58,563 bases of DNA, taken from contig JAGXRP010000046.1 in the NCBI GenBank assembly GCA_018335795.1, positions 1-58,563 on the forward strand, written 5' to 3'. The first letter of the stretch is position 1. Each line of letters starts with the position of its first letter. The notes beneath the pieces are model-generated. The model had not been told where the DNA came from. It worked only from the letters and a program-made list of their open reading frames with translations, and made no database searches. Below are positions 5,367 through 20,505 of this stretch, piece after piece. The position numbers and the translations under genes were made by a program. Origin of the DNA: Desulfobulbaceae bacterium (lineage in GTDB: Bacteria > Bacteroidota > Ignavibacteria > Kapaibacteriales > UBA2268).

Positions 5367-5458
5367 TATTTGTTTTAAACTTTTTTTGATACAAATGTAA
5401 CAAAACGAACTTTCACTTGTTTATACATTATGAGAGAGTTCAAATTCAGAATGAAAAT

Positions 5459-5756
5459 TTGATGTTAAAAATTTGTAAAATAGGGATTTCTACAGAGCTA
5501 CAGAGCTACAGAGCTACAGAGCTACAGAGGAGCGACGAGATGCTAAAATCTTATTGTACCCTATTGCTCGGAACTTTTCCACATTCAAAAACACTTGAAA
5601 CACACAAGAATCATAGCTTTTATTTATCAACCAAACTCTCGCAAAGTTCATTGACAATACATAAATCGTATTCACTCATAAACAAGCGGGGTCATTTATG
5701 ATTGTCAGCTAAGTACCCAGAGCACGGGGAGCTTTGGGGGTGAACTGAATACCCAA
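5459..5756 (+). repeat. Leader repeat, copy A (upstream of secreted-protein gene pair)
   Basis: A 298-bp sequence that recurs in inverted orientation at 20069-20356, nearly 90% identical by my hand alignment. From 5' to 3' it holds TTGATGTT, an 8-bp tandem repeat, GAGGAGCGACGAGATGC, a long conserved block 5637-5690, a hairpin (GACAATACATAAAT 5653-5666 with ATTTATGATTGTC 5694-5706), CAGAGCACGGGGAG and a TTGGG/CCCAA hairpin at 5733-5756. It ends 66 bp before the ATG of the secreted-protein gene at 5823. A 94-codon ORF here (5417-5701) is destroyed in the other copy, so the element is DNA- or RNA-level, not coding. It could be a mobile repeat, a promoter/leader module or a small RNA gene. Confidence 0.85.
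5490..5529. repeat. 8-bp tandem repeat CTACAGAG x5
   Basis: Five perfect head-to-tail copies of CTACAGAG inside leader repeat copy A. Copy B has three units at the corresponding site (around 20301-20325 on the complementary strand), followed by CTTAAGAGG. The copy number therefore varies between the two elements, as expected for replication slippage. Confidence 0.9.
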
Positions 5757-5822
5757 CGCGGGAAATTATGAAAATGCTTTTTATTTTTTCTTAATAATTT
5801 AAAAATAATATAGGATTTATCA

Positions 5823-6782
5823 ATGAAAAAGGTTAGTAATAATATAACTATGAAATTTGCAACTTTCTTTGTAGTTGCTTTTGCTTTGTCTGCTTTCTTA
5901 ATTAACTCCACTTTTGCACAAAGTGGTTTACCTTGTGAACCAACTTTGGGGTATCCTGAAGTAGAATGGAATGATGGAGGTCCATTAGATGTTTACCCCT
6001 CGAGTATCGATTGTCCGGGTAATTGCAAAATTACTTTTGAATATAAACATAGATATGTTCAAACAATGTTAGGTTGGAGAAGAGATATAATTATAACAAA
6101 AATTACTCGGAGTGCAGGATGTGCAAATTGTGATTTTAATGAATTTAGACTAATGCTTTGGGGCATATGGGTTCATCATGCTGACATTGATGAATGGATT
6201 GATCCTGGTACTAATCAGTATAGCAATAGATATAGTGCGGCAAGTTGCTGGAGATATGAATTTGGTCCAATGGTTGAAGCATATCCTTGTTCCTCTGAAT
6301 GTTGTTCCCAATATTACAATGTAAGCCGTACAACCCAGGGAATTATATATTTCTGGATGACAGAACCAACTCCAATAACAAATAATTGTACTGAATATCC
6401 ATGCAACTACTTTATATGTGATAAGTTAAGTAATATTAGTATGACAGAGGAAGAATCTTCACCAATTTATGATGATAATCCTGGCTTGGGTGGATGGAAT
6501 AAACAAAGTTTAAACCCTAATGACAAATATCTTATTAGCGTTAACCCTAATCCTGCAACTCAAAACATTAATTTGAATATTAGTGGATTGTATGACAATT
6601 TCGTTTCTGTATCAATACATAATCAAAATGGTGAAGAAATTATTTCAAAACAATATAACACTTCTACAGGGACATTTGATAAAGATATTGATGTATCCAA
6701 TATTAATTCAGGAGTATATATTTTAACAATAAAAAGCAATGACAATATAATCCATACACAAAAAATAATAATATCAAAATAA
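5823..6782 (+). CDS. Cys-rich secreted protein with T9SS sorting domain
   Basis: 319 residues. A signal peptide (residues 1 to ~33, ending STFAQ) is followed by a Cys- and Trp-rich domain (residues 35-205, about 15 Cys including CPGNC, CANC and ECC), suggesting disulfides outside the cell, and a C-terminal sorting domain starting VNPNPAT with SGVYILTI near the end. The N-terminal domain matches no family I recognise. RBS-like AGGA lies 8 nt before ATG 5823; an alternative ATG is at 5850. First gene of a two-gene unit (10 bp or less to the next frame) headed by leader repeat copy A. Confidence 0.75.
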   Translation: MKKVSNNITMKFATFFVVAFALSAFLINSTFAQSGLPCEPTLGYPEVEWNDGGPLDVYPSSIDCPGNCKITFEYKHRYVQTMLGWRRDIIITKITRSAGCANCDFNEFRLMLWGIWVHHADIDEWIDPGTNQYSNRYSAASCWRYEFGPMVEAYPCSSECCSQYYNVSRTTQGIIYFWMTEPTPITNNCTEYPCNYFICDKLSNISMTEEESSPIYDDNPGLGGWNKQSLNPNDKYLISVNPNPATQNINLNISGLYDNFVSVSIHNQNGEEIISKQYNTSTGTFDKDIDVSNINSGVYILTIKSNDNIIHTQKIIISK

Positions 6783-6812
6783 TACAAGTATTTGTATAAA
6801 GGGGTTTTTCAA

Positions 6813-8111
6813 ATGAAATATTTAATATTACTACTATTTATTGTTAATTGCTTAATCTTAAAATCAGAAGACGAGTTCATTTATAAAAACTTGGTCGGCT
6901 TTCCATTACCTCAGGTTTACGGATATAATGATAATATAGCAATTATTGCATCAAGAATAGGTGATTCGAACTTTGTATATCTGACAGAAGATAAATGCGA
7001 AACTTGGAAGATGATTTATAAAGAGAAAAGAATAACAAAAGAGCCTTTTAGCGGTAACATTATGGATATATTATTTATTAGCAACCAATCTTTCCTATTA
7101 AATTTTCATAGGGGCACAATCGTAGTGACCACTGATAAAGGTGAAAATTGGATTGAATCTGTTCCTGATAGTGCATACTACAATTCCGGAGCATATATGT
7201 CATACCATCTTAATGACACCACATATTTATTTCATTATCATTTACTTCTAAAATCTTCTGATAATTTTAAAACTTGGCAATCATTTGAAAATCCTTTCGA
7301 AAAGGCTGACAGTATATCTATTGGCAGGATGCATTTGACAAAAGATGGTTATTTTATTGCATACTTGTATGATTGGATAAATGACCATCGGTATCATGCA
7401 TCGCTAAATTTGTATGATGGCAATTACCAATTAATTGAAACGCCACCTCATATGACCCAATCATATTTCATAAACAAGGATGTGGGGTGGTGCTTCAGAC
7501 GATTTAATTTTTTTGAATTTAATCCGGATACACTTAATTATCAATTAATATACAAAACAATTAATGGTGGTAAAGATTGGTTTAAGCAAATGGATACGAC
7601 TATTTTGCAATGTGAATTTACAGACATGAACTTTTTAAATGATAAAATCGGGTTTGCAATCGCAATAAATAGTCTTATATTGAATACTGAGGATGGTGGT
7701 GAAAATTGGAGAATACTTTTTGAAGTCAATGAAAATGATAAACCTTTTGGCACTATTTACAAAATAGTAACATTTGATGAGAACACGGCATTATTTAGAA
7801 GTTCAACAAAAGTCTTTTTGCTTCAAAGGAACCCAAGCGGAGTTTTTGAAATGATTCCGGAATTTGGAAGCAAGAATCAATCTTATTTAGCGAGACGTGG
7901 CGGGGAAATCCACTTACAAAATTTGGAAATACTAAATTCACCTGCCTTACATACAATTATGGGTGCTGAAGTCGAAAATAATTTGCATTTCAATATAGGA
8001 AAAAATGCTTCTGTAATCACTCTTCCGTCGGATATTTCGTGCGGATTATATTTCATTCATTTAGATACTTCCGAGGGTAGGCAATTTATACAAGTGCTCA
8101 TCCAAGACTAA
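6813..8111 (+). CDS. Secreted BNR/Asp-box (Ycf48-like) propeller protein
   Basis: 432 residues from the ATG at 6813, which is preceded by an AAAGGGG Shine-Dalgarno-like stretch and opens a good signal peptide (MKYLILLLFIVNCLI). The body holds recurring TTDKGENW, INGGKDWFK and TEDGGENWR strands, the S/TxDxGxxW Asp-box of BNR/Ycf48-like beta-propellers. The C-terminus (about residues 385-432, ISCGLYFIHLDT) resembles a degenerate Por sorting domain without a clear PNP motif. Probably a secreted propeller of unknown ligand. It is the second gene of the pair with 5823-6782 and ends at a strong terminator. Confidence 0.7.
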   Translation: MKYLILLLFIVNCLILKSEDEFIYKNLVGFPLPQVYGYNDNIAIIASRIGDSNFVYLTEDKCETWKMIYKEKRITKEPFSGNIMDILFISNQSFLLNFHRGTIVVTTDKGENWIESVPDSAYYNSGAYMSYHLNDTTYLFHYHLLLKSSDNFKTWQSFENPFEKADSISIGRMHLTKDGYFIAYLYDWINDHRYHASLNLYDGNYQLIETPPHMTQSYFINKDVGWCFRRFNFFEFNPDTLNYQLIYKTINGGKDWFKQMDTTILQCEFTDMNFLNDKIGFAIAINSLILNTEDGGENWRILFEVNENDKPFGTIYKIVTFDENTALFRSSTKVFLLQRNPSGVFEMIPEFGSKNQSYLARRGGEIHLQNLEILNSPALHTIMGAEVENNLHFNIGKNASVITLPSDISCGLYFIHLDTSEGRQFIQVLIQD

Positions 8112-8117
8112 AATTAT

Positions 8118-8147
8118 AGCCCGGCTCAATGGTCGGGCTTTTTTTTT
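8118..8147 (+). terminator. Rho-independent terminator
   Basis: Stem AGCCCG / CGGGCT (8118-8123 with 8134-8139) followed by nine T, just 7 bp after the stop codon at 8111. It closes the secreted-protein pair. Confidence 0.9.
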
Positions 8148-8213
8148 GTGAAAATTTCATTATCCCGAATATAAGAGACAGCTCTTTTAAACAACTTTTT
8201 TTTGGCATGATAT

Positions 8214-8681
8214 ATGAGTCATTTAAGCATTATGAAACATAAACAAAATGATGTGAAAATGCTTAGCTATAACAGGAATTTCAAATTAATATTATTGATA
8301 ATCTCGAGTGCGTTCGTGGTTAGTTGTTCGTCATCAGTCAGATTTTCTGATAGCGGCGATGCGGGATATGAAGATAATTTGAGCAAAGGTGAAGTATTTT
8401 ATGGCAAAGCCTCGTACTATGCAGATGCTTTTCATGGAAAACGAACTGCAAGCGGTGAAGTTTTTGATATGAACAAACTCACTGCTGCCCACAAAACTCT
8501 TCCTTTCGATACAATTTTGAACGTGAAAAATCTGAAAAACGGTAGAAGTGTAATGGTGAAAATCAACGACAGAGGACCCTTTGCCGGCTCTCGAGTTATA
8601 GATTTGTCAAAGGCTGCCGCTCAAGCATTGGATATGATTAGAGATGGCGTAATTGAAGTAGAAATCACAATAATGGAGTAA
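8214..8681 (+). CDS. rlpA: RlpA-like septal/peptidoglycan lytic protein, lipoprotein
   Basis: 155 residues. A lipoprotein signal ends VVSC, with the lipidated Cys at about residue 38 from the first ATG, followed by a double-psi beta-barrel domain. Typical RlpA motifs are [36 protein letters not shown] and [11 protein letters not shown]. RlpA family members cleave or bind denuded peptidoglycan at septa; this one lacks a SPOR domain, so it is the short form. The start is uncertain (8214, 8232 or 8259); 8259 gives the most compact signal peptide. Six bases separate it from the next gene. Confidence 0.9.
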
Positions 8682-8687
8682 ATGTAG

Positions 8688-9044
8688 ATGGATATTGCAG
8701 AATTGAGAGAATATTGCCTTGCCAAAAAAGGTACAACTGAGGATTACCCTTTTGACGAGACTACATTATGTTTGAGAGTCGGCGGAAAAATATTCGCTAT
8801 CACCGATATCGTAAAATTACCTTTCACGGTCAATTTGAAATGCGACCCCGAGCGTGCAATTGAGCTCCGAGAACGATATAGTAATATCATTCCGGGTTAT
8901 CACATGAATAAAAAGCTCTGGAATACGGTCGAACCCGGCGGAGAAGTGGATGACACATTGATGCGTCAACTAATTGACCATTCGTACGAATTAATCTTTG
9001 CGAGCCTGAAAAAAAAGCAACGAGACGAAATACTCGGCAATTAA
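8688..9044 (+). CDS. MmcQ/YjbR family protein
   Basis: 118 residues matching the MmcQ/YjbR family along its whole length: TTEDYPF near the N-terminus, KIFAITD, LKCDPERAIELRE, GYHMNKKLWNTV and a C-terminal LIxxSYELIFASL helix. The fold is CyaY-like and DNA binding has been proposed, but the cellular role is not settled. Probably co-transcribed with rlpA. Its stop overlaps the stop of the convergent M15 peptidase gene by 4 bp. Confidence 0.9.
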   Translation: MDIAELREYCLAKKGTTEDYPFDETTLCLRVGGKIFAITDIVKLPFTVNLKCDPERAIELRERYSNIIPGYHMNKKLWNTVEPGGEVDDTLMRQLIDHSYELIFASLKKKQRDEILGN

Positions 9045-9634
9045 GGTTTATCGAAGTGGTGGTAATCTTTTAATGAAGTCCAATCTCCACCCCATCGCCA
9101 CCCGCGAGATTTCAAGAATTTAACGACCTCCGAATCGGTTGTAAATGTTCCGGGAACTTTGGGATTATACTTGGCGCCCTTTGGTGATATTTTGCCATCA
9201 CCGTAAATTACCGGATTTTGCATAGGGTTGATATCAATCGCCCTACCTGCCGCATGGTGAGAAAGCCGCTCTGTGCCGGCAATGAATCTGTAATTGAAAG
9301 CGGAACTATTATTTGCATTCATCGAAGCATTATCATCCCAATCAAATTCTACAATCGGAATTGCCTTAGCAACGGGGAATTTAGTCTTTTTTAGTATCTC
9401 AAAAGCTTCTTTCACATCTTGAGCTACCGCAATATTCAGCACAAATTGTCCCGAGCGTAGTTTACCATCGGCATCATAATATTCGACATTGACAATTTCA
9501 AGCGAATCAATGATACTTTTGGGAGCTTTGGTTCCTGCAATAGATTGCTCGAAAGTCAAAGAACTATCTTTAATAGAAGTAGTATTCAATCCGTAAAGGA
9601 ATAAAATTGCTATAAATATCGTGGTTATTTTCAT
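9041..9634 (-). CDS. M15-family metallopeptidase (D-Ala-D-Ala carboxypeptidase-like), secreted
   Basis: 197 residues. An N-terminal hydrophobic signal (MKITTIFIAILFLYGL) is followed by a VanY/M15-type zinc peptidase domain. The SxHxxGxAxD zinc motif is seen as LSHHAAGRAIDI (around residue 124) and the second half as WGGDWTSLKDYHHF near the C-terminus. Expected to trim peptidoglycan cross-bridge peptides in the periplasm. Its start overlaps the end of the mlaD-like gene by 4 bp (ATGA-type), so it is the last gene of the Mla-type operon, an uncommon partner. Confidence 0.88.
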   Translation of the reverse strand: MKITTIFIAILFLYGLNTTSIKDSSLTFEQSIAGTKAPKSIIDSLEIVNVEYYDADGKLRSGQFVLNIAVAQDVKEAFEILKKTKFPVAKAIPIVEFDWDDNASMNANNSSAFNYRFIAGTERLSHHAAGRAIDINPMQNPVIYGDGKISPKGAKYNPKVPGTFTTDSEVVKFLKSRGWRWGGDWTSLKDYHHFDKP

Positions 9635-10602
9635 TTTTCCTTAGGAGGTGGTTCTGTTAAAAATATAGTAGCCGGGTCGTCCGAAAAAGCACGAAGGGCA
9701 TTTTGCAATTCTTTATTTGTGCGACGAATTTCGTTAAGTGTCTCTTGCAAGGTCAAAATTGAAGTTTGTGCGCGCAACCCGACTGCGCCAATCATTTCAT
9801 TAGTGTGTTGCATTGTAGAGTCATATCGCAAATACATCTCGTTAATATAATATGGTATTCTTGCGTCGGCAATTTGAGCATTTAGATTATCCACAGCTTC
9901 ACCAAGTTGCAAAGATGTTTCGTAAAATTCTTCTGTTGTCTTTGTTATATTGTCAATTGCAGACGATGATTCAACTTCTTGCATAACATTATCCAATCTT
10001 GTTGTAGCATGTGCAAGGTTTTCTATCATTCTGTTAAGAGCTTCGGAGCCAAAAAATTCGGATGTAACTTGCAAGAATTTCACAGTATTTAAGGAGATAC
10101 CCTCGACGTCGAGCTTAATAAGATTATTCATTACTTCACGAGCAGCCAAAGACATCTCTTCCAAACTCGAAGGTGCCGACCTGATATATTCGTATGGTGG
10201 GTCGAAAGTAATTTTGGGGAAAATCGTAGCGATTTTTTCATCCGTTGGATAATGCAATTGCAAGAAACTGCCACCGGCAATACCCGACATAGCCGGTTGG
10301 ACGCGTAAAGCATCGTTGATATCAATATTTTCGTTAATTTGCATGATTACCTCTACTAATCTCCCGTCGGGAGCCACAGCGATATTAACGATTCGACCGG
10401 CAGGCACACCCTGATATTTAACTGCGGAACCTACGTCGAGTCCTTCTACAGAAGTTTCAAAATATGTCACAAAATACAGTTGTTTTTTCAGAAACTTACC
10501 GGCACCAAGCCAAATAATAGCTCCTGCCATCAGTACTGTTCCGAAAATCACGAAAAGTCCAATAAGAAATGCAGAGGACGTTTTTTTTCTTTTATTTGCC
10601 AT
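9631..10602 (-). CDS. mlaD: MlaD/MCE-domain lipid-binding protein
   Basis: 323 residues. A single N-terminal transmembrane helix (residues ~11-33) anchors one MCE domain (residues ~38-118, with GLDVGSAVKYQGVPAGRI and the SGIAGGSFLQL segment). A long alpha-helical, coiled-coil-like C-terminus follows. In MCE systems this subunit binds lipid in the periplasm and docks on the MlaFE ABC transporter. One base separates it from the ATPase gene upstream. The long helical tail suggests a needle- or tunnel-forming variant rather than the short E. coli MlaD (inference). Confidence 0.9.
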   Translation of the reverse strand: MANKRKKTSSAFLIGLFVIFGTVLMAGAIIWLGAGKFLKKQLYFVTYFETSVEGLDVGSAVKYQGVPAGRIVNIAVAPDGRLVEVIMQINENIDINDALRVQPAMSGIAGGSFLQLHYPTDEKIATIFPKITFDPPYEYIRSAPSSLEEMSLAAREVMNNLIKLDVEGISLNTVKFLQVTSEFFGSEALNRMIENLAHATTRLDNVMQEVESSSAIDNITKTTEEFYETSLQLGEAVDNLNAQIADARIPYYINEMYLRYDSTMQHTNEMIGAVGLRAQTSILTLQETLNEIRRTNKELQNALRAFSDDPATIFLTEPPPKEK

Positions 10603-10603
10603 G

Positions 10604-11362
10604 TTACCCTTCCATCGGAATTCTATTAAAGAAATTATAAACTAATTCATTCTCTTTCATATTGAGCAACTCCTCAGGTTTACCTTCGGTAATTACACCT
10701 TTGACGCTTTTATCGAGCATCAAAACCCTGTGTGAGATAGTCAAAATACTTGCCAAGTCATGTGTAATGATTACCATAGTTGTGTTTAGTCCTGCGTTCA
10801 GTTCGATTATCAACTTATCCAATGCCGACGCTGTCAGAGGGTCTAACCCCGACGAAGGTTCGTCAAAAAACAGAATATCTGGGTCTAATGCCATTGCTCT
10901 GGCTAAAGCTGCTCTTTTTTGCATACCGCCGCTTATTTCTGAAGGATAAAAATTCTTATAATTTATCAACCCAACGGAATTTAATTTTATATCAATGATT
11001 CTGTCGGCAGTTTCCTCATCAAGCGAAGTATTACTGTCGAGCGCCAATTTTACATTTTCGCCGATAGTCATAGAAGCAAATAATCCATTCGATTGGAAAA
11101 GAATCCCGAATTTTTTCATAATTGATGATGAATCATCTTGCGAAGCCTCACTCAGATTTTCGCCCTCAATCAAAATTTGCCCTTCGGTGGGAACTTCCAA
11201 TCCGATTAATTGCCTGAGCAAAGTTGATTTGCCACAACCACTTCCTCCTACAATGACAAAAATTTCGCCTCTGCGAATTTTGAAATTTACATCTTCCAAT
11301 ACTGTGAGCTCACCATACCTGACAGTTATGTTTTGAGCTTCTATGATAAAATCGTCTTCCAA
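10604..11362 (-). CDS. mlaF: MlaF-like ABC transporter ATPase
   Basis: 252 residues, the normal size. Walker A GGSGCGKST (residues 39-47), ABC signature ISGGMQKRAALARA, Walker B DILFFDEP with SGLDP, and a switch His in MVIITHD. The family couples ATP hydrolysis to phospholipid movement between inner and outer membranes through MlaE and MlaD. It sits between the permease and MCE genes with 1-bp gaps on both sides, so all three are surely co-transcribed. Confidence 0.93.
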   Translation of the reverse strand: MEDDFIIEAQNITVRYGELTVLEDVNFKIRRGEIFVIVGGSGCGKSTLLRQLIGLEVPTEGQILIEGENLSEASQDDSSSIMKKFGILFQSNGLFASMTIGENVKLALDSNTSLDEETADRIIDIKLNSVGLINYKNFYPSEISGGMQKRAALARAMALDPDILFFDEPSSGLDPLTASALDKLIIELNAGLNTTMVIITHDLASILTISHRVLMLDKSVKGVITEGKPEELLNMKENELVYNFFNRIPMEG

Positions 11363-11363
11363 T

Positions 11364-12494
11364 TTAAATCCCTATTGCTTGAAAAATAAATGTAAAAATA
11401 GCATCCGACAAAATAATCATGAAAACGGATGCAACAACCGATGATGTAGTCATTCTACCGACTGAATCCGCACCACCTTCTACCTTCAGACCCTTGTAGC
11501 AACCTATTGCAGCAATGACAAACCCGAAAAATAAACTTTTTATCAAACCCGAAGCAATATCACCATAAGTCAACGACATTTCCAAACGATTAATGTAGCT
11601 TATTACCGTGACGTCTAATGTGGAAATAGCTGCAATAAGACCGCCAAACAAACCAACTACGTTGCAAATCATAACAATAAATGGCATAGATAAAACAACG
11701 GCTAAGACTCGTGGTAAGACTAAAAATTCATACTTGTCATATCCCATTGAAGTCATTGCATTTATTTCGTCAGTCACTTTCATCGAGCCAATTTCAGCTG
11801 CAAAAGCTGAGCCAGACCTTCCTGCTACAAGAATGGCAACCATCAGTGGCGATAATTCTCGCGTGATTGAAATACCTATCAAATCAGCAATAAACATATC
11901 AGCACCAAAGCGTTTGAGCTGAGTTGCACCTTGATAGCCTGTAATTAATCCGATCAGAAACACAATCAATATAGTAATCGGCAGAGCCATCACTCCCGAA
12001 CGGAACATCTGAGATGGAAAATCTTCCCATCGCATTGAAAGTGGTTTGACAAACAATTTCAACATTTTGGTAGTCAAGATTCCAAAGTATTCAACAAAAC
12101 CATGAATGTCGGTTAAATTGGTTTTGATTTTATTGCCCAAATTTTCGACCTTTAAAACAAATTTTGAGCCTTTCTCTTCTTTTTCAGGTTCGGCTTCATC
12201 TTTTGGCATGAGCAAGTCAAGGTAGCTTTGCATGTCAGTATTTACACCAATCATCTCAAATTTGATTTCTTTTTCCTTGCACATTGTTTCGACTCTGTAA
12301 ATGAAAGCGAGCATGAATGTATCATAACGCTCTACATTTTCCATATCCAATGTTATGCTTTTTGTATCTTTGGTAATTGGCATTTGCTTCAAATCATAAT
12401 TATCAGCATTTGTCATAACAAGCTCGCCCGAAGGTTTCATTGCAATTGAATCCCCTTCGTTTACATAATCAATCTGTACGATTTTCTTACTCAT
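11364..12494 (-). CDS. mlaE: MlaE-like permease with fused N-terminal STAS domain
   Basis: 376 residues from the ATG at 12494 (MSKKIVQIDYV); a longer frame reaches 12629 but adds a non-conserved hydrophobic leader. Residues 1-~115 look like a STAS-type domain with an ITLDMENVERYD strand/helix. The rest is the MlaE permease core with about five membrane segments, GLITGYQGA, REL(S)PLMVAILVAGRSGSAFAAE and EINAMTSMGYD. In E. coli the STAS subunit MlaB is separate; here it is fused to the permease, as in several other phyla. First gene of the operon mlaE-mlaF-mlaD-M15 peptidase. Confidence 0.92.
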   Translation of the reverse strand: MSKKIVQIDYVNEGDSIAMKPSGELVMTNADNYDLKQMPITKDTKSITLDMENVERYDTFMLAFIYRVETMCKEKEIKFEMIGVNTDMQSYLDLLMPKDEAEPEKEEKGSKFVLKVENLGNKIKTNLTDIHGFVEYFGILTTKMLKLFVKPLSMRWEDFPSQMFRSGVMALPITILIVFLIGLITGYQGATQLKRFGADMFIADLIGISITRELSPLMVAILVAGRSGSAFAAEIGSMKVTDEINAMTSMGYDKYEFLVLPRVLAVVLSMPFIVMICNVVGLFGGLIAAISTLDVTVISYINRLEMSLTYGDIASGLIKSLFFGFVIAAIGCYKGLKVEGGADSVGRMTTSSVVASVFMIILSDAIFTFIFQAIGI

Positions 12495-12674
12495 ATCAAT
12501 CCGATTTTCAAAAATAATTATGATATTTCTACATATCAAAATGTGAAGAATATTATATGCAACACCTTCGTATATAATTGAAGGAATTGAATATAAGAAA
12601 TTGTATATTTTTTTCGTGTGTTCTTTCAATAAAAAGTGTTATTTTTGAAGATTGATTATTTTGTATTATGATAA

Positions 12675-13271: not shown

Positions 13272-13276
13272 TCGAA

Positions 13277-15436
13277 CTATCTGACCTCAGCACCTTCACC
13301 AATTTCTTTTTCCGGCGTTACAAACAGCAATTTCCCATCTTTGGACGCAGCCAACATCATTCCTTCTGACATTTCGCCCATTAATTTTGCGGGTTTAAGA
13401 TTTGCTACCACGACTATGATTTTCCCGACCAAATAATCAGGTTCGTAGAATTCGGCTACTCCAGCCAGAATTTGACGTTTTTCCGTTCCTGTATCAATCT
13501 GCAATTTCAACAATTTTTTAGATTTGGGCAACTTCTCGGCGCTTATGATTTTCGCAGTAACGAGTTTCACTTTCGAGAAATAATCAATATCAATCAATTC
13601 TTGCTCCGGCTCGGCATTTTTTGGTCCTTTATCGCCAAGCTTCGCCATTTGTGCTTCGACTACATCGTTTTCGATATGTGTAAACAAGATTTCCGGTTTG
13701 TGGATTGGGCTACCCGATTTCAAAGTTGGATATGATGCTTCTTTCCATAGATTTGTCGCAATTGGTTCGGCATTTTGAGATTGCCCGGTATAGTTATTCT
13801 GCGAAAGAAGATTCAAGATTGTAGCCGAGGTATTGGGCGTAATCGGAGCGAAAAGTACGCCGAGAGTACGAACAAATTGGCAGCATACAAACAAAGTTTT
13901 GGCACATTTGTCGGGGTCAGATTTGCCGGATTTCCAAGGCTCTTCGTCATTGAAATATTTGTTAGCAGCTCTAGCGACGTTCATAATATCAGTGATACCA
14001 TCACGGAAGCGATATTTTCTGAAATTTTTGTCGGATTTGGCTATTCCTTCGATTAATGCTCTGACAGCGTTGGCGTCATTTTCGGAATATTTGCTCACAA
14101 ACAATTCATAGGCATCAGCATTTTCAGACTCTGCCCATTTTTGCCAATCTTGAGCCAAATCTGCATATTTACCGGAGAGTTCGGGAACATTTCCATCATA
14201 ATTTTTGTGCAAAAACTGAAGCGTACGATTGACAAAATTCCCGAATATTGAAGCTAATTCACTATTGTTGCGAGTTTGGAAATCTTTCCAAGTAAAATCG
14301 GAATCCCGTGTTTCAGGGAAATTCATCGCCAATGAGTAACGCAGCACATCCACATGAATTGGCGATGGGAAATCTGCAAGAAAATCGCGTAAATCAATGG
14401 ACCAATTCCTCGATTTGGAGAATTTCTGCCCTTCGAGATTCAAAAATTCATTTGCGGGTACATTATGCGGCAAAATATAATCACCAAATCCGTGCAAATA
14501 AGCCGGGAAAATCAACGTATGAAACACGATATTGTCTTTGCCAATGAAAGCGATATAGTCAGTATCGGGATTTTTCCACCATTTAGTCCAATCAGCATTA
14601 TTCTCATTAGCCCAAATTTTTGTAGCCGAAATATAGCCAAGCACCGCATCAAACCAAACATAGAGTCTCTTTCCGAAAGCTTTTTCGTCGGAAATACCTT
14701 CGATACCCTCAATTTTGACGCCCCAATCCAAATCTCTTGTAATTGCACGCTCTGCCATTCCGACTTTCAGCCAACTACGGGTTTGAGCAACCACATTTTC
14801 TTTCCATTCATGCTCGTGCGATTGGAGAAATCCCTCCAAGAATGTTTGGAATTTGTCAAAAGCAAAATACCAATGCGTGGTTTTGCGAACTTCGGGAGTT
14901 TTGCCCGAAACAATTGAAATAGGAGATTTGAGTTCAGTTTGATTATAATACGCTCCGCAGCTATCGCATTGGTCGCCGCGAGCCTTGTCAAAGCCACAAT
15001 TAGGGCAAATACCTTCAACGTACCTATCGGGAAGGAAAATTCCTGCTACTTTGTCGAAAAACTGTTCCTCTTCTTTTTCGGTCAGATAGCCTTTTTTCAA
15101 GAAATCAGCGAAAAATTCTCGTGCAGTTTCGTGATGCAGCGGTTCTGAAGTGCGGGAATAAATATCGAAAGTCATCCCGAATTTGTCGAAGGCTTCTTTA
15201 TTTGCAAAGTGATATTTATCAACGATTTGCTGAGGAGTGACTTTTTCCTTTTCAGCTGAAATCGTAATAGCAACGCCGTGCTCGTCGGAGCCACAAACAT
15301 ATAAAATTTCCTCGCCGCTCAGTCGCATAAAGCGAGCAAAAATATCTGCGGGCAAATATGCTCCGGCAGCGTGACCCAAGTGTAAATGTCCGTTAGCATA
15401 AGGCAAGGCTGACGTAATAAGAGTTCGTTTCTTCAT
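13277..15436 (-). CDS. metG: Methionyl-tRNA synthetase
   Basis: 719 residues. Class I motifs: HIGH-type PYANGHLHLGH near residue 17 and KMSKS variant KFSKS. Zinc knuckle CPNCGFDKARGDQCDSC (about residues 143-159) is of the four-Cys type. A C-terminal Trbp111/EMAP-like tRNA-binding domain (from about residue 610) with KVVTA-like KLVTAKII, GTEKRQILAGVAEFY and SEGMMLAAS completes the dimer-forming long form. It charges tRNA-Met with methionine. Single gene, convergent with nusB. Confidence 0.97.
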   Translation of the reverse strand: MKKRTLITSALPYANGHLHLGHAAGAYLPADIFARFMRLSGEEILYVCGSDEHGVAITISAEKEKVTPQQIVDKYHFANKEAFDKFGMTFDIYSRTSEPLHHETAREFFADFLKKGYLTEKEEEQFFDKVAGIFLPDRYVEGICPNCGFDKARGDQCDSCGAYYNQTELKSPISIVSGKTPEVRKTTHWYFAFDKFQTFLEGFLQSHEHEWKENVVAQTRSWLKVGMAERAITRDLDWGVKIEGIEGISDEKAFGKRLYVWFDAVLGYISATKIWANENNADWTKWWKNPDTDYIAFIGKDNIVFHTLIFPAYLHGFGDYILPHNVPANEFLNLEGQKFSKSRNWSIDLRDFLADFPSPIHVDVLRYSLAMNFPETRDSDFTWKDFQTRNNSELASIFGNFVNRTLQFLHKNYDGNVPELSGKYADLAQDWQKWAESENADAYELFVSKYSENDANAVRALIEGIAKSDKNFRKYRFRDGITDIMNVARAANKYFNDEEPWKSGKSDPDKCAKTLFVCCQFVRTLGVLFAPITPNTSATILNLLSQNNYTGQSQNAEPIATNLWKEASYPTLKSGSPIHKPEILFTHIENDVVEAQMAKLGDKGPKNAEPEQELIDIDYFSKVKLVTAKIISAEKLPKSKKLLKLQIDTGTEKRQILAGVAEFYEPDYLVGKIIVVVANLKPAKLMGEMSEGMMLAASKDGKLLFVTPEKEIGEGAEVR

Positions 15437-15606
15437 TTTAATAAATCCGTATCAGGTATATTACAAACTTACAAATATAGCACTTTTAGAGCGACTTTAT
15501 GTCGGAATTAATTACATGGCTACATATAGAAGACTTAAGTGATATATTACAATTTATTCATATTGCTTCGTTTATATAGTATGTTTAAATATGAGGAAAA
15601 ATAATC

Positions 15607-16083
15607 ATGGGAAATTTAAATGCAATCGGTCTTGACTCCGAAAAAACAATGAAACTCGCTACAAAATTGAATGAATTACTTGCTAACTATTCGTTCTTCT
15701 ACCAAAATACTCGCGGCTATCACTGGAATATCAAAGGTGAAAAGTTTTTCGAACTTCACCTAAAATTTGAAGAATTATACAATGACCTCTTTTTGAAAAT
15801 TGACGAAGTTGCCGAAAGGATTTTGACACTTGGATTCACTCCAAACCATAACTACACAGATTATGCGAAACTTTCTAAAATCGAAGAAAGCAAACATGTC
15901 ACAGATGGCAAAAAGGGCGTCGAAGAAGTGCTGAATGCTTTCAAATTAATCATCACATTGCAAAGAGAAATTCTCGATTTATCCGGTGATGCCGGTGACG
16001 AAGGCACAAACGCATTGATGAGCGATTATATTCGCGAACAAGAAAAATTAGTTTGGATGTATTCTGCTTATCTGAACAAATAA
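15607..16083 (+). CDS. dps: Dps-family ferritin-like DNA-protection protein
   Basis: 158 residues. The intersubunit ferroxidase centre is visible in YHWNIKGEKFFELHLKFEE and DEVAERILTLG (His, His, Asp, Glu ligands). Dps dodecamers oxidise Fe(II) with peroxide, store iron and can coat DNA. The N-terminus is short with few Lys, so DNA binding may be weak. RBS-like GAGG lies 12 nt before the ATG. Monocistronic, ended by the terminator at 16111-16141. Fits the other peroxide-defence genes of the window. Confidence 0.93.
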   Translation: MGNLNAIGLDSEKTMKLATKLNELLANYSFFYQNTRGYHWNIKGEKFFELHLKFEELYNDLFLKIDEVAERILTLGFTPNHNYTDYAKLSKIEESKHVTDGKKGVEEVLNAFKLIITLQREILDLSGDAGDEGTNALMSDYIREQEKLVWMYSAYLNK

Positions 16084-16110
16084 GAATTGCAAGCAAAAAT
16101 CAGAGAAAGG

Positions 16111-16141
16111 GTTTGCCTCACGAGGGCAAACTTTTTTTTTT
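16111..16141 (+). terminator. Rho-independent terminator of dps
   Basis: Stem GTTTGCC / GGGCAAAC (16111-16117 with 16124-16131) with a TCACGA loop, followed by about ten T. It lies 28 bp after the dps stop. Confidence 0.92.
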
Positions 16142-16189
16142 TATGGGGTGAGTTGTCTCGTCAGGTGATGCACTTACCGGATGGATTAA

Positions 16190-16218
16190 CAAAAAAAGCC
16201 CGACAATTTTGCCGGGCT
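16190..16218 (-). terminator. Terminator of the convergent secreted-protein operon (possibly bidirectional)
   Basis: Stem AGCCCG / CGGGCT (16197-16202 with 16213-16218). On the minus strand it is followed by seven T (16190-16196); on the plus strand an A and then seven T follow too. It lies 60 bp downstream of the minus-strand stop at 16278. Confidence 0.85.
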
Positions 16219-16277
16219 ATTTTTTTAGGATTGTATAAATCATTTTCCTTGTTAAACTCAATATGAGTACTATTTCT

Positions 16278-18680
16278 TTACCTTGCAACCATAACCGACT
16301 GTGTCATTATTTTGCCTTCAATATTTATTTTTAAATAATATTGAGAAGGCGGCAAATCAATAGTTGATAGACGTGTTGAATTTTTACCCTCGCGAACTTT
16401 GATTGTTTTTGTCAACATTTCTTCTCCCATCAATGAATAAATTGCAAGTTTGCACTCAGAAGCAACTTCGGAATTGAAATAGATGTCAATCCAATTGTCT
16501 GTGGGGTTCGGAATGATTTTTATTTCATCTGGTTCGATTTGATTATCAGGTAAGTCCCTGTGTAAGTCATATTGTGGACCACTTGTTCCTATGACGTCAC
16601 AAAATACCCAAAAACACTTTTCACATAATTCTTGTGTTCTTAAATTAGTAATACGAACACAAATTTCAGTATAGCCATTGAATAAGATTAATGGACTTAT
16701 TGGAACCGGAAATTGAGTAATATCAGACAATCTTAATGTAGAACCTATCCAAACCATTTGAGCATAATTATCATTTACCATAACATTCAATGAATCATCA
16801 AAGTTACAATAATCAGGAGTATTTTTGTAATCAAGCTTTAAATAAACTCCGCATTCAAAATTTGAAGAATCAATCGGGAATTTATAAACTGAATCAATTA
16901 CAATAGTGTAAGTGTCACAACATGATTCAACTGAATCGCAACTTAGTTTTTGAGTTAAAACTGTAGCACATTTTACACTATCATGAGATGAAGTTGTACT
17001 TGAAAATACAAAATTAAGCTTGATTTCATTAAACATTGCAGGAATACCTTTTGAACAAATCGTACCTATCCTTTTACTTTCACCAAAATTAAGAATGAAA
17101 TCTGAAGGTGTTTGGTAGGTTTTATTAAAAGGTGTTTGTTGTGTTAAAGCAAATTCATCAAGATAAAAATCATAACTGTCAGAAGGGACATCCGAATCGA
17201 CAATGAGATATTGATTTGATAAATCAAATTTACAAGAACTGCTATCTGAGGCTGAGGTGTTATTTATCATAATATCCCAACAACAATCACCTGTTGATGA
17301 AGAATCTACTTTCTGTAAATAGAAATTAATGCCACTCGGGTTATTTGCCATGGATTCTAAGTCGTTGCAATCACAAAGACAATTCAATTTAAATTCCTTT
17401 GTACATTCAGAAAGCAAGGAATCGTTATCCGAATAAAGTTGAATTGTAAATTTATTATTTTCTGAATCAAAATTATCTATACAAAAGCTATTCACAACAG
17501 GTGTGCCATTGAAAACGTAAGGTGGATAGCTAGCTATAGTATCTAATATCTGTGATTGGGCATGGAAGATTTTTATCCTGCGTATTCCACAATGACCTAT
17601 ATGAGTATATTTGATCGGAATTTCTATTTGGAAATTATAACAACACTTTGTGGAATCGTCGGGTAATGACTGCCTTTCGATTTGAAATTCATAACTATAT
17701 GATTTACAAATGCATGGTTCTGGCTCAGTTGAATCATAAGGGATAATTGTTAGATTATCAATGAAATAGTATCTCTCATAATTATCTCTAGTCCAATTAG
17801 ATTTATATTGATTTGCGGATGCTGATAAATCATAATCATCTTCAAAATTACCAATTGTTACGTAATTATATGTAATACCTTCTGGCACCTCAAGTATCCC
17901 GGAAATTTCTTGCCATCCTCCTAATCCATTTACATCCGCTGATTGATACAAGGAATCTTTGCTACAAATCTGGGCTTCTGTTATATAATGGATAGGCTCT
18001 GTGTCATTATATGCGAGATTAACAGTCCATGCTGTATCTTTGACCGGAAATTGATTAACAATGGCTGTATCAGAAAAGAAAGCACATATCTGTTTAATTG
18101 GAAAATTTCTTCTTTGGGATTTTGATACATAAAATTTAACCTTATATAATGCAGGACCCACCAAAGGAATTAATAATCTGGATTGAATGTACTCCTTATA
18201 ACTCAAGAATGTACCCTTTTCATATTCACCGTTTAATCGTTTAGGTTTAATCTGTCCTATTCTAATGCCTGTAAATGCACTATCTTTATTATTATAGTCT
18301 GGATAACCGTAAGGATATCGTTTCTCAGGCTGCGCACCAAAAATCACACTGACATTTGGCGATTTTGCAGAACCAAGCCCATTACGATGGAAATAGTCAG
18401 GTGAGCCATTCGATGTTGCCCAGTACCAGCCACCGAACCAATTGCCAAGACCATCTTTATAATCACAATAGCAGGGAGCCCCGACTGGGGGCCAAGTAAA
18501 AACGTCATTAGGTGGTTGAAAAGCACAAAAACCAATGCATTTCATTAATTCATTAATCTCGTAAAAATTACTTCCGGTAAGTTTAATTGGATACATGTTA
18601 TTTTTCGGGAATTCAAAACTCCCATCCTTAACTATCTGTTGAGATGCCAAATCACTTATGCTTGCAGTCGCAATTACCAC
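16278..18680 (-). CDS. Large Cys-rich secreted protein with T9SS sorting domain; apparent 5' frameshift
   Basis: At least 800 residues. The N-terminal part (around residues 1-290 of the frame) looks like a galactose-binding/jelly-roll domain (QIVKDGSFEFPKN, LGGWQEISGILEVP, YFIDNLTIIPYD). Cys-rich segments follow (CCYNFQIEI, CDCND, CCWDIMI, CCDTYTIVI), then a C-terminal sorting domain starting IPNPTDNWIDIYF. The frame lacks an ATG before the signal peptide. In frame just upstream is KASLLFQINLLLFVVVIA, and an ATG with GGAG ribosome site lies at 18751 in the -1 frame. One extra A in the AAAA run at 18721-18724 would give a normal signal peptide. So this is either a frameshift mutation, a sequencing error, or a start on GTG 18680. 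Second gene of the operon with 18767-20026. Confidence 0.7.
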   Translation of the reverse strand: MVIATASISDLASQQIVKDGSFEFPKNNMYPIKLTGSNFYEINELMKCIGFCAFQPPNDVFTWPPVGAPCYCDYKDGLGNWFGGWYWATSNGSPDYFHRNGLGSAKSPNVSVIFGAQPEKRYPYGYPDYNNKDSAFTGIRIGQIKPKRLNGEYEKGTFLSYKEYIQSRLLIPLVGPALYKVKFYVSKSQRRNFPIKQICAFFSDTAIVNQFPVKDTAWTVNLAYNDTEPIHYITEAQICSKDSLYQSADVNGLGGWQEISGILEVPEGITYNYVTIGNFEDDYDLSASANQYKSNWTRDNYERYYFIDNLTIIPYDSTEPEPCICKSYSYEFQIERQSLPDDSTKCCYNFQIEIPIKYTHIGHCGIRRIKIFHAQSQILDTIASYPPYVFNGTPVVNSFCIDNFDSENNKFTIQLYSDNDSLLSECTKEFKLNCLCDCNDLESMANNPSGINFYLQKVDSSSTGDCCWDIMINNTSASDSSSCKFDLSNQYLIVDSDVPSDSYDFYLDEFALTQQTPFNKTYQTPSDFILNFGESKRIGTICSKGIPAMFNEIKLNFVFSSTTSSHDSVKCATVLTQKLSCDSVESCCDTYTIVIDSVYKFPIDSSNFECGVYLKLDYKNTPDYCNFDDSLNVMVNDNYAQMVWIGSTLRLSDITQFPVPISPLILFNGYTEICVRITNLRTQELCEKCFWVFCDVIGTSGPQYDLHRDLPDNQIEPDEIKIIPNPTDNWIDIYFNSEVASECKLAIYSLMGEEMLTKTIKVREGKNSTRLSTIDLPPSQYYLKINIEGKIMTQSVMVAR

Positions 18681-18766
18681 AACAAATAAGAGTAAATTGA
18701 TTTGGAATAAAAGCGATGCCTTTTAAACAACATTTCTAAATTAATTTTCATTTTTTCTCCATTCTT

Positions 18767-20026
18767 TTATTTTTTAATAAATTTCAAATAAAAATCATCT
18801 ACTTTTAAGAAATAAAAACCTGAACTCAATGCGGATACGTCAATATCATGATAAAATATACCTTCAAGAACTATTTGCCCCAATATATTCGTGATTTTGT
18901 ATTTTCGTTCCCTCATCACAATACCAGTAACTCGAATCATATCTACCGCAGGGTTTGGAATCACCAAAGGTTCTTTATTTTTCAATCTTTCAATAGACTC
19001 CTTAGCACTTGTTGGAAGTAAAACTCCCCCTTCTCTAAATACTTCAAGTCCTATAGTTTCCTGGGTTAGCACTGAATACACATACATCCATTTATTATTA
19101 AACCTGTCTGTGCATAGATTACTAACGCCTTCACCTGATATTCCTGAATTTGAAGGAGTGAAATTTGACCAAGTAGTTCCATCAAATTTACTTAATCCGT
19201 TATAATAGCTTCCTACCCAAACTATATCATTACTATCAATGGTTAAAGTAGTCAGCTGATTGCTCGCAAGTTCGGAATTTTTGTTGTTATATTCTACCCA
19301 CGAAGCATTATCGTATTTTATCAGTCCACCTAAAGTATCTATAAAGTCGATCCCTGCAACAAACCATTTATTGCCTTTGCTGTCAATTCCAATTTTTTTT
19401 GTCAAATGAAGATTAAAAAAACCAGTATTTTCAGAATTATATAGAAGAAACTCCCCATTAGTTTGATGATAAACCCGTGAACCATTAATTAAATGCCATG
19501 TAGAGCCATCTTTATCTATCACAACTTCACCAAATTCATTATCAAATTGTCCACTACCATCTGTACGAAGGACTTCCCAGTCTTGACCATCAAATTTCGA
19601 AAGACCGTTTTTTGTAGCACACCATAAATTATTTTTATTGTCAAAAGCAATATCATGAACTACATGGTGACTTAATCCCGAGTTTTGAGGATTGTATTCT
19701 GTTATTATACCATCCTTGTAATGCATCACTCCCTTGCCTCTTGTACTCATCCATATGTCGCCATTAGCATCCATAGCAATGCTACTTATTGAATAGCGAC
19801 CTATAGTATCAATTGATAAGTCTTCTAAGTTAAGTCTTATAACCCAATGTGTTCCTTCATCATTAGTTTGAATATAAATCGAATTTCCAAGAGCAGCTAT
19901 TGTCCAAGATGGCTTTATATCATGAAAATACATCCACTCGGGGTTTTCGGACTTCATTTTCAGTGTGAATACAGATAAAAGACTTATCATGAAAATGATA
20001 CAGATGTTTAATATGCTTTTTTTCAT
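18767..20026 (-). CDS. Secreted beta-propeller protein (two-component-regulator-propeller-like) with T9SS sorting domain
   Basis: 419 residues from the ATG at 20026 (MKKSILNICIIFMISLL, a signal peptide preceded by GGAAAA); the longer frame to 20089 adds residues overlapping the leader repeat. Repeated units of about 40-50 residues carry DxNGDIWMST, DNKNNLWCAT, DSKGNKWFV and DSNDIVWVGS with GLSKFDG, the pattern of regulator-propeller (two-component-system sensor-like) blades. The C-terminus has VIPNPAVDMI and LSSGFYFLKV, a sorting domain. No sensor kinase part is present. It is the first gene of a two-gene unit headed by leader repeat copy B; 15 bp precede the apparent ATG of the next gene. 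Confidence 0.8.
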   Translation of the reverse strand: MKKSILNICIIFMISLLSVFTLKMKSENPEWMYFHDIKPSWTIAALGNSIYIQTNDEGTHWVIRLNLEDLSIDTIGRYSISSIAMDANGDIWMSTRGKGVMHYKDGIITEYNPQNSGLSHHVVHDIAFDNKNNLWCATKNGLSKFDGQDWEVLRTDGSGQFDNEFGEVVIDKDGSTWHLINGSRVYHQTNGEFLLYNSENTGFFNLHLTKKIGIDSKGNKWFVAGIDFIDTLGGLIKYDNASWVEYNNKNSELASNQLTTLTIDSNDIVWVGSYYNGLSKFDGTTWSNFTPSNSGISGEGVSNLCTDRFNNKWMYVYSVLTQETIGLEVFREGGVLLPTSAKESIERLKNKEPLVIPNPAVDMIRVTGIVMRERKYKITNILGQIVLEGIFYHDIDVSALSSGFYFLKVDDFYLKFIKK

Positions 20027-20068
20027 ATAATTTTCCAATTTTATTATAAAAAATTTTAACTTCAATGC

Positions 20069-20356
20069 TTGGGTATAAGACACCCCCAAATCTCCCCGTG
20101 CTCTGGGAGCTTAGCTGACAATCATAAACGACCTCGCTTGTTTATGAGTGAATACGATTTATGTATTGTCAATGAACTTTGCGAGAGTTTAGATGGTAGA
20201 ATAAAAATATGATTATTGTGTGTTGCAAGTGTATTTGAATGTGGAAAAGTTCTGAGCAAAAGGGTACAATAAGATTTTAGCATCTCGTCGCTCCTCTTAA
20301 GCTCTGTAGCTCTGTAGCTCTGTAGAAATCCCTATTTTACAAATTTTCAACATCAA
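20069..20356 (-). repeat. Leader repeat, copy B (upstream of secreted-protein gene pair, inverted)
   Basis: Minus-strand copy of the element at 5459-5756. Both run in the direction of the downstream secreted-protein gene: this copy ends 42 bp before the ATG at 20026. The blocks GAGGAGCGACGAGATGC, AACTCTCGCAAAGTTCATTG and the hairpin region are conserved; the 8-bp repeat has three units rather than five. The CTCCC...GGGAG stem present here is broken in copy A (TACCC), while the TTGGG/CCCAA stem is kept in both. An ORF in copy A is stopped here by TAA. Confidence 0.85.
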
Positions 20357-20474
20357 TTGTCTTTATTGTATGTTTGTACAATGCCAATATAAATAAAATT
20401 CCTTATTTCCAAATAAAAATTGAAAATATTTTCAAAAATTTGCACTTTTCTTTCTCCATCTCCTTGGGAGAGGG

Positions 20475-20487
20475 TCGGGGTGAGGTT
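20475..20487. repeat. Short dispersed motif TCGGGGTGAGGTT
   Basis: Thirteen bases identical, in inverted orientation, to 58295-58307. It sits in the gene-free stretch 20357-20559, next to a 9-C/8-A homopolymer (20497-20513). The surrounding GGGAGAGGGTCGGGGTGAGG resembles a degenerate intergenic repeat I have seen in many bacterial genomes (established only by recall). No gene is evident in this stretch. Confidence 0.5.
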
Positions 20488-20505
20488 TCTAATCTTCCCC
20501 CCCCC

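What the first reader, a model, noticed from the sequence alone, without database searches (positions are those of the whole stretch)
5459..20356. A ~290-bp leader repeat heads two separate pairs of secreted-protein genes in inverted orientation
5459-5756 (+) and 20069-20356 (-) are copies of one element, roughly 88-90% identical by hand alignment. Both point toward, and end 42-66 bp before, the first ATG of a two-gene unit. Each unit has one propeller-type and one Cys-rich secreted protein, at least three of the four with a T9SS sorting domain (5823 plus 6813; 18767 plus 16278). The element holds a slippage-prone 8-bp repeat (5 units versus 3), a conserved imperfect hairpin GACAAT..ATTGTC and a TTGGG..CCCAA stem. 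An ORF in copy A is not conserved. Two matched pairs with the same leader argue for a duplicated regulatory cassette or an RNA element, not chance. Its function is unknown to me.
Basis: partly seen in the sequence, partly recalled or inferred. Interest (0 to 1): 0.75.

Follow-up and report, generated by a model that had tools for sequence, protein, structure and literature searches.

The report
Shared leader heading swappable secreted-protein cassettes
A roughly 300-base stretch of DNA sits in front of many different secreted-protein genes in one genus of Ignavibacteria-like bacteria; it looks like a shared, hairpin-bearing, repeat-tuned control leader for surface-protein cassettes that are swapped in and out at set places in the chromosome.

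Summary
The element has 11 copies in this genome, and full or short copies in both other held species of the genus, with no convincing match in 51 further family genomes. By eye, every G000 copy points at a secreted-type ORF. In seven chosen pairs the post-array leader is 89-100% identical, the genes behind it only 43-75%. Its parts: a promoter-like box ~60 bp upstream (13 of 17 units), an octamer array of 3-13 units (exact pattern found only in leaders in the three genomes), and a 3' module whose hairpin H3 (loop ACGGGGA) is 97.4% paired in 19 sequences with three compensated pairs.

At seven loci compared with G001 (four by both flanks, three by one) the cassette is replaced, truncated or absent, flanks 82-93% identical. 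Two G001 leaders identical over 117 nt have 10 and 13 units, then switch 3' module.

Best reading: a transcribed ~350-460 nt 5' leader acting as a rheostat for exchangeable, mostly T9SS-exported protein cassettes. Transcription and function are inferred. Main rival: alike only because it recombines.

The parts
5459..5756 (+). Leader copy A (element as given; conserved block runs to about 5770)
   Evidence: blastn and alignments
20069..20356 (-). Leader copy B
   Evidence: 91% identical to A, E 5.2e-110; alignment
20384..20413 (-). Promoter-like pair TTTG-N18-TATATTGG upstream of leader B (a pair of this kind at -57 to -60 in 13 of 17 units; copy A has another upstream type without it)
   Evidence: motif match only, no transcription data
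5491..5529 (+). Octamer array of copy A, 5 units of TACAGAGC
20302..20324 (-). Octamer array of copy B, 3 units of TACAGAGC
5530..5645 (+). Post-array segment of A with small hairpin H1 (GAGAT..ATCTT)
5664..5703 (+). Hairpin H2 of A (AATCGTA..TATGATT); its inner part occurs in alternative sequence types in different copies
5716..5738 (+). Hairpin H3 of A: CCCAGAGC-ACGGGGA-GCTTTGGG
   Evidence: 97.4% of cells paired in 19 sequences, 3 pairs with changes on both sides; in the minimum-energy fold of A
20085..20107 (-). H3 position in copy B (one C-A mismatch; H3 is not in B's minimum-energy fold)
5823..6782 (+). A1, secreted-type Cys-rich protein (319 aa, 12 Cys) with T9SS sorting domain
   Evidence: Pfam PF18962 2.5e-11
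6813..8111 (+). A2, BNR/sortilin-like propeller, 432 aa, no sorting domain found by Pfam
18767..20026 (-). B1, Reg_prop propeller with T9SS sorting domain, 419 aa
16278..18596 (-). B2, Cys-rich protein (31 Cys) with T9SS sorting domain; ORF may start at 18680 (GTG)
5280..8100 (.). Variable locus A: in G001 a 421-aa gene 47% identical to B1, in G002 a 745-aa gene with a sorting-domain-like C-terminus; both flanks syntenic
16152..20505 (.). Variable locus B: no comparable cargo in G001 (about 770 bp), a 406-aa propeller-type gene in G002; both flanks syntenic

Best explanation
The element is a shared 5' leader of a genus-specific family of exchangeable secreted-protein cassettes. Transcription probably starts about 25 bp upstream of the 'element', from a sigma-ABfr-like promoter, and gives a 5' untranslated leader of roughly 350-460 nt. 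Near its 5' end lies an octamer array whose unit number changes by slippage (3-13 units) and which I propose tunes expression of the operon. Its 3' part folds into hairpins H2 and H3; H3 presents a nearly invariant ACGGGGA loop to a partner (protein or RNA) that co-regulates the cassettes. Behind the leader come one to three secreted-type proteins, often a small Cys-rich one plus a beta-propeller, most units with a type IX sorting domain. Whole cassettes are gained, lost and replaced at set chromosomal places, often beside dispersed repeats, and leaders recombine with each other. Shown: copy number, position and orientation, block boundaries, restriction of the exact array to leaders, length variation, H3 pairing with some compensated change, cassette turnover between species, leader mosaicism. 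Inferred: transcription, promoter identity, expression tuning, the H3 partner, the role of the repeats, surface exposure.
For: 11 of 11 G000 copies and the 5 further full copies lie 5' of a secreted-type ORF (by eye) in the same orientation, with 62-99 nt from H3 to ATG in 17 units. In 7 chosen pairs the post-array leader is 89-100% and H2-H3 79-96% identical, against 60-73% between H3 and ATG and 43-75% in the gene. H3: 97.4% of cells paired over 19 sequences, 3 pairs with changes on both sides; the whole structure is 94.7% paired against 31-52% when slid. A TTTG-N17-22-TAnnTTnG pair lies upstream in 13 of 17 units and no such pair between H3 and ATG in any of the 17; the described consensus is TAnnTTTG with TTTG at -33 (PMC7366714, passages seen). 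The exact two-unit array pattern occurs only in leaders in G000 (33 matches), G001 (27) and G002 (16); backwards control 0. Two G001 leaders are 100% identical over 117 nt after the array but have 10 and 13 units, then differ in H2-H3. Seven loci (A, B, F, G by both flanks; C, D, I by one) differ from G001 although the flanks match at 82-93%.
Against: No RNA data. Covariation rests mainly on H3, and the shuffle control is mild: 67 of 500 shuffles reach the observed covariation score and the percentage paired, 24 of 500 the number of compensated pairs. H3 is absent from the minimum-energy fold in 5 of 21 sequences that carry its loop motif, B among them, closes by only 3 bp in g1c, and is replaced by other sequence in 2 leaders. 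A, F, g2a and g1d lack the promoter pair as searched, and C and I have a lone TAnnTTTG-like box between H3 and ATG. In B. thetaiotaomicron the median 5' UTR is 32 nt, so this would be a very long leader. Four of 11 units show no sorting domain (E, H, I, K; E is cut by the contig end, K was looked up only in the capped genome-wide list). Relatives of some cargo genes have the promoter module but no leader, so the leader is not essential for them. Upstream identity reaches 91% in one pair (A/C, over 45 columns only).
Confidence: 0.6

Rival explanations
1. Passive homology arm: the leader has no regulatory role of its own; it is alike between copies because cassettes are copied and converted into each other, and it serves only as a recombination tract.
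For: Leaders are mosaics: 9 pairs with 88-100% identity in the 5' part and 74-78% in the 3' part, 4 pairs the reverse (E/K 67% and 91%). At the G locus, G000 and G002 are alike through the leader and then carry different genes. Many cassettes lie beside dispersed repeats with tens of hits.
Against: A pure homology tract would not need H3 with compensated changes, a fixed 62-99 nt to ATG, or short leaders that keep H2-H3 while losing the rest. Promoter-only units also differ in place between species, so the leader is not needed for movement.
Confidence: 0.2
2. DNA-level switch: the leader holds a recognition site for a recombinase that inverts or exchanges the DNA between copies, as its inverted arrangement in the window might suggest.
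For: Two copies in inverted orientation 15 kb apart; cargo exchange; mosaic leaders.
Against: In both sister genomes the 8 kb between A and B is collinear with this one, so no inversion between A and B is seen; no common short core was noticed at the F, A and B junctions read by eye. A recombinase gene was not searched for.
Confidence: 0.08
3. The leader encodes a leader peptide (frame ...SYCTLL...SQSSLTYHKSYSLINKRGRL*), translated as an attenuator or small peptide.
For: From the SYC codons on this frame has no stop in all 16 full copies and ends at the same place in 15 (L041 shifts frame and ends earlier); a GAGGAG motif precedes the ATG in most (by eye).
Against: Codon positions 1, 2 and 3 diverge equally (0.155, 0.153, 0.150; 13 of 16 rows, subfamily 2 left out). 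The ATG is missing in 4 of 16 (H, I, J, K), and in L050 a 10-bp duplication puts it out of frame; short leaders lack the frame.
Confidence: 0.06
4. A non-autonomous mobile repeat (MITE-like) that happens to lie near these genes.
For: Dispersed, ~300 bp, genus-restricted, many copies.
Against: Co-oriented with a secreted-type ORF at a fixed distance in the full copies; no terminal inverted repeats or target duplications noticed by eye in 11 aligned copies; at F the sister genomes lack the whole cassette, not the leader alone.
Confidence: 0.04

Closest known systems
Heptanucleotide-repeat rheostat of Haemophilus influenzae hmw1A/hmw2A adhesin genes (PMC8262952, passages seen)
   Same: Short tandem array of variable unit number downstream of a promoter, in the 5' UTR of surface-protein genes that exist as paralogues.
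   Different: Unit is 8 bp, not 7; arrays here have 3-13 units (11-24 in the passages); here a conserved structured leader follows, the leaders head unrelated gene families, and no expression effect has been measured.
Upstream-conserved-sequence / expression-site systems of variable surface antigens, e.g. Pneumocystis MSG (search listing only; details recalled)
   Same: A constant 5' segment with a variable repertoire of surface-protein genes behind it.
   Different: Here there are many loci each with its own leader, no sign of a single expression site, and the exchange is seen between species, not within a strain.
Cis-regulatory RNA leaders of Bacteroidota (riboswitch-type or protein-bound 5' UTR motifs)
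   Same: Structured 5' element upstream of a functionally similar gene set, with a conserved hairpin loop.
   Different: No Rfam family matches; found in one genus only; contains a slippage-prone array; partner or ligand unknown.
T9SS cargo proteins with type A sorting domain (PF18962, TIGR04183)
   Same: Seven of 11 G000 units carry at least one such domain, one of them (F) below the Pfam cut-off.
   Different: The Cys-rich partners belong to families without a name in the libraries searched; surface location not tested.

Membership tests
Cis-regulatory structured RNA leader | Constant position and orientation 5' of a coherent gene set | tested here: met
   All 11 G000 copies and 5 further full copies
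Cis-regulatory structured RNA leader | Secondary structure kept by compensated changes | tested here: inconclusive
   H3 three compensated pairs, 97.4% paired in 19 sequences; H1 one compensated pair; H2 none; shuffle control mild
Cis-regulatory structured RNA leader | Transcribed as part of the mRNA | not testable with these tools
   Only promoter-like motifs upstream in 13 of 17 units
Cis-regulatory structured RNA leader | Member of a described RNA family | tested here: not met
   No Rfam match at gathering threshold in the window, both copies included; for copy A only mir-122 at E 0.37, 18.3 bits against a gathering score of 70
Simple-sequence-repeat contingency locus (hmw type) | Short tandem repeat between promoter and start codon | tested here: met
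   Octamer arrays of 3-13 units in all 16 full leaders and the cut one; in copy B the array starts 60 bp after the promoter-like box. That the box is a promoter is inferred
Simple-sequence-repeat contingency locus (hmw type) | Unit number changes faster than the surrounding sequence | tested here: inconclusive
   g1b and g1c identical over 117 nt beside arrays of 10 and 13 units; one pair, two loci of one assembly, so assembly error is not excluded
Simple-sequence-repeat contingency locus (hmw type) | Unit number alters expression | not testable with these tools
   No expression data
MITE / mobile repeat | Terminal inverted repeats and target-site duplications | tested here: not met
Variable surface-antigen cassette system | Cargo exchanged at constant sites | tested here: met
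   A, B, F, G differ from G001 and G002 with both flanks matched; C, D, I differ from G001 with one flank matched; between species only
Variable surface-antigen cassette system | Switching within a strain | not tested
   One genome per species is held

The most novel reading that the evidence does not exclude
The leader is the common tag of a bacterial surface-protein repertoire: one structured RNA leader whose octamer array sets the expression of each cassette by slippage, whose H3 loop lets one trans-acting factor control all cassettes together, and whose homology lets new Cys-rich/propeller cassettes be dropped behind it at set chromosomal docking sites. It would be an expression-site-like variation system in Ignavibacteria-like bacteria built on type IX secretion.
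Probability: 0.22. Interest if true: 0.82.

Novelty: new variant of a known kind. Interest (0 to 1): 0.58.

Why it matters
If right, it gives a testable case of coordinated, tunable variation of secreted proteins in bacteria known here only from assemblies, and an unnamed RNA element with a defined hairpin and gene set on which to look for a partner. Array length and cassette content could be measured in metagenomic long reads without culture.

Tried and rejected
Rejected readings: chance similarity (E 5.2e-110). Mobile repeat (no terminal repeats or duplications noticed by eye; fixed orientation). Conserved peptide: the frame without stops in all 16 copies looked striking, but codon positions diverge equally and the start is not kept. 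A second frame through H3 looked protein-like in some copies but has stops in others. Intrinsic terminator for H3: no U run follows (by eye).

Led nowhere: a scan of GTDB contigs with a 23-base H3 pattern returned only two contigs of G002, which gave that species a name (HGW-Ignavibacteriae-1), and one match in G+C-rich DNA of a Phycisphaeraceae contig taken as chance. Phage collection: no match. Twelve stretches of G000 with other sorting-domain genes, chosen, held no leader core by nhmmer; one of the 12 had the promoter module (L067), others only dispersed repeats or weak matches. Paper searches on NVEALA, T9SS cassettes, Ignavibacteria with T9SS, slippage in Bacteroidetes and the G002 isolate name showed nothing on this element in the listings. 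NCBIfam and PDB searches of some cargo gave sorting domains, models matched through the sorting domain and a weak partial PorZ match below cut-off. Weak model hits in G031 and G066 at E 0.06-0.1: the G031 hit overlaps an ORF unlike the cargo; the G066 hit was not inspected. The G001 hit L119 (E 0.03) has no secreted-type gene behind it and was taken as chance. A strict form of the palindromic repeat seen after many cassettes matches in only 5 of 137 loci and, with up to 3 mismatches, not in the window. Structure prediction was not used.
Full report
WHAT IS THERE. A search of the window's own assembly (3.53 Mb, 82 contigs) gives 11 copies, the weakest at E 7.4e-37, and then only matches of 15-24 bases with E above 0.07. 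Among 59 other genomes searched with copy A, the two species of the same genus (G001, G002) have copies; two more genomes (G034, G036) match only in the octamer repeat.

POSITION. For each copy I listed the ORFs around it. All 11 copies in G000 lie upstream of, and co-oriented with, an ORF with a hydrophobic N-terminus of signal-peptide or lipoprotein type (by eye; no predictor was run). The distance from the GGGGAG[CA]TT of H3 to the start codon is 62-99 nt in the 17 units measured (11 G000, 5 further full copies, one short one). The first genes belong to several families; A1/J1, I1/K1, D1/b1 and d1/e1 resemble each other clearly, with weaker matches among A1, J1, D1 and b1. The later genes are mostly BNR/sortilin-like propellers. 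Seven of 11 G000 units (A, B, C, D, F, G, J) carry at least one type IX sorting domain: F is below the Pfam cut-off, J is read from the genome-wide list, and E, H, I, K showed none (J1 and K's proteins were not scanned one by one, and E2 is cut by the contig end). The genome has at least 150 such domains (150 of 220 candidates scored), so most sorting-domain genes do not have this leader.

ANATOMY. No pair of this kind lies between H3 and ATG in the 17, but C and I have a lone TAnnTTTG-like box there. In 153 upstream regions of fetched DNA the pair TTTG-N18-21-TAnnTTnG is commoner on the sense strand (9) than antisense (3) or in mononucleotide shuffles (mean 1.1), so the genus plausibly uses the TTTG / TAnnTTTG promoter described for Bacteroides (PMC7366714, passages seen). 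(2) An octamer array. The exact pattern TACAGAG[C/G]TACAGAG matches 33, 27 and 16 times in G000, G001 and G002, and every match lies in a leader (10 of 11 in G000, 3 in G001, 3 in G002, one of these cut by a contig end); the read-backwards control gives 0. Units per array: 3-13; each array is nearly uniform; three unit types; copy H has TACATCGG, which that pattern cannot find. (3) A post-array segment with a small hairpin H1. (4) H2, whose inner part exists in alternative sequence types. (5) H3, an 8-bp stem with loop ACGGGGA (ATGGGGA in F). (6) An A+T-rich, less similar stretch to the ATG.

BOUNDARIES. In seven pairs that I chose, the post-array leader is 89-100% identical and H2-H3 79-96%; the 110 bp upstream are 49-91% (the 91% over 45 columns only), H3-to-ATG 60-73% and the first 300 nt of the gene 43-75%. 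For I and K, which share a gene family, the post-array segment is 97% identical and the gene 75%. The leader is a discrete conserved block.

STRUCTURE. On 16 full copies, three helices pair in 96.9% of cells against 31-54% when slid; two pairs are compensated (118 of 500 shuffles reach that; 4 of 500 reach the covariation score). With three short leaders added (19 sequences, 18 pairs) it is 94.7% against 31-52%; three H3 pairs show changes on both sides, among them two C-G to U-A in L098; H2 shows none. The shuffle control is mild: 67 of 500 reach the covariation score and 24 of 500 the number of compensated pairs. Single-sequence folds have the H3 loop closed in 16 of 21 sequences with the loop motif (not in B, g1b, L081, L115, L121; by 3 bp only in g1c), and z-scores of the 23 sequences folded run from -4.2 to +1.3. 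H3 is thus the only hairpin with fair support, and copy B itself has a mismatch in it. No Rfam family matches.

A model of H2-H3 finds 11 matches in G000, 9 in G001 and 4 in G002 at E up to 1. Twenty of these 24 have E of 2.8e-15 or less; 19 of the 20 are the sequences the model was built from, and L115 is the one new strong copy. Two more (L111, L117, E about 1e-6) keep H2 but have other sequence in place of H3. One weak one (L121, E 0.06) stands before a gene that starts like B1 and is probably a diverged member. One (L119, E 0.03) has no such gene. In the family, 54 genomes searched with stricter filters, only the three of this genus have convincing matches; two others have one hit each at E 0.06-0.1.

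SHORT AND MISSING LEADERS. L052, L081, L098 and L115 lack array, H1 and the middle but keep H2 and an H3-like sequence. Promoter-module sites without leader core stand before single propeller-type genes (L067, L054/L083) and before 385-aa genes (L078, L089). In L067 and L054 the missing leader goes with a missing first, Cys-rich gene that units with related second genes (g1a, A) have. L086 has promoter and leader start joined to a palindromic repeat, with no gene in the stretch that could be read. Of 16 full leaders, 15 head two or more ORFs; F heads one.

TURNOVER. With flanking DNA I looked at seven G000 loci in sister genomes. Both flanks matched: A, a 421-aa gene 47% identical to B1 in G001, and a 745-aa gene with a sorting-domain-like C-terminus in G002; B, no comparable cargo in about 770 bp in G001, a 406-aa propeller-type gene in G002; F, about 153 bp in G001 and 135 bp in G002, no cassette; G, other genes in G001 and G002. 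One flank matched: D, a truncated leader followed by another gene in G001; C, in G001 the matched flank is followed by a dispersed-repeat piece and not by the cassette, and a C1 homologue lies on another contig; I, flank present in G001 without a match to the cargo. Flank identity is 82-93%. In G002, A, B, F and G differ; for C no cargo match was found but the far side was not read; D was not followed there; I leads to a leader start at a contig end. J is rearranged between the genomes and was not counted. E, H and K were not tested.

MOSAIC LEADERS AND SLIPPAGE. Pairwise identities of the 5' and 3' leader parts correlate at 0.42 (120 pairs of 16 leaders); nine pairs are alike in the 5' part and unlike in the 3' part, four the reverse (thresholds). 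g1b and g1c in G001 are identical over 117 nt after the array, have 10 and 13 units, and then carry different H2-H3 types. This points to both array change and recombination, though from one pair of assembled loci.

CODING TEST. One frame has no stop from the SYC codons on in all 16 full copies and ends at the same place in 15 (L041 shifts frame), which made a leader peptide worth testing. Differences by codon position are 0.155, 0.153, 0.150 in 13 rows (the three subfamily-2 copies were left out), so there is no sign of selection on amino acids; the ATG is missing in 4 of 16 and out of frame in L050.

INTERPRETATION. Position, boundaries, H3 and the array fit a transcribed regulatory leader. 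The nearest known mechanism is the hmw1A repeat rheostat of Haemophilus influenzae, where more 7-bp units lower expression and whether this acts on transcription, stability or translation is left open (PMC8262952, passages seen). The constant leader before variable cargo recalls expression-site systems (search listing only; otherwise recalled). I do not file the element as a member of either: the effect on expression and switching within a strain are untested. The main rival is that the leader is alike between copies only because it recombines; H3 compensation and the short leaders argue against this but not conclusively.

VERDICT. A real, genus-specific, multi-copy leader of exchangeable secreted-protein cassettes; regulatory role likely, not shown.

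Noticed in passing
L040:3143-3250 and L044:10919-10985: A palindromic dispersed repeat (TTCTTCGCTTCGCTCAGAATGAC type) lies just upstream of 6 of 11 G000 leaders (by eye) and has tens of hits in G001 and G002. Another (CCGTCAG..CTGACGG) follows several cassettes, not A or B. They may be recombination arms.
   Followed up: partly
L043, L045 (units I and K): A 99-aa secreted-type peptide followed by a 433-aa lipoprotein-like gene recalls, from memory, NVEALA peptide/6-bladed propeller pairs of Bacteroides; I1 and I2 have no Pfam or NCBIfam match.
   Followed up: partly
L009-L011, post-array segment: Subfamily-2 leaders contain TTATCCACA, a DnaA-box-like nonamer (recalled consensus), where most others have TTTTCCACA.
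   Followed up: no
G000 contigs C1, C2, C32, C58; G002 contigs C7, C14, C22: Several leaders lie within about 0.1-2.6 kb of contig ends, so assemblies break in or near these cassettes and copy numbers may be underestimates.
   Followed up: no
L048, between c1 and c2: In G001 a gene that looks like a transposase (by eye) interrupts a cassette between its Cys-rich and propeller genes.
   Followed up: no
L037:1944-3020: C2 (16 Cys, sorting domain) has weak matches to matrixin/reprolysin-type metallopeptidases, best E 1e-4 and below cut-off, so some cargo may be enzymatic.
   Followed up: no
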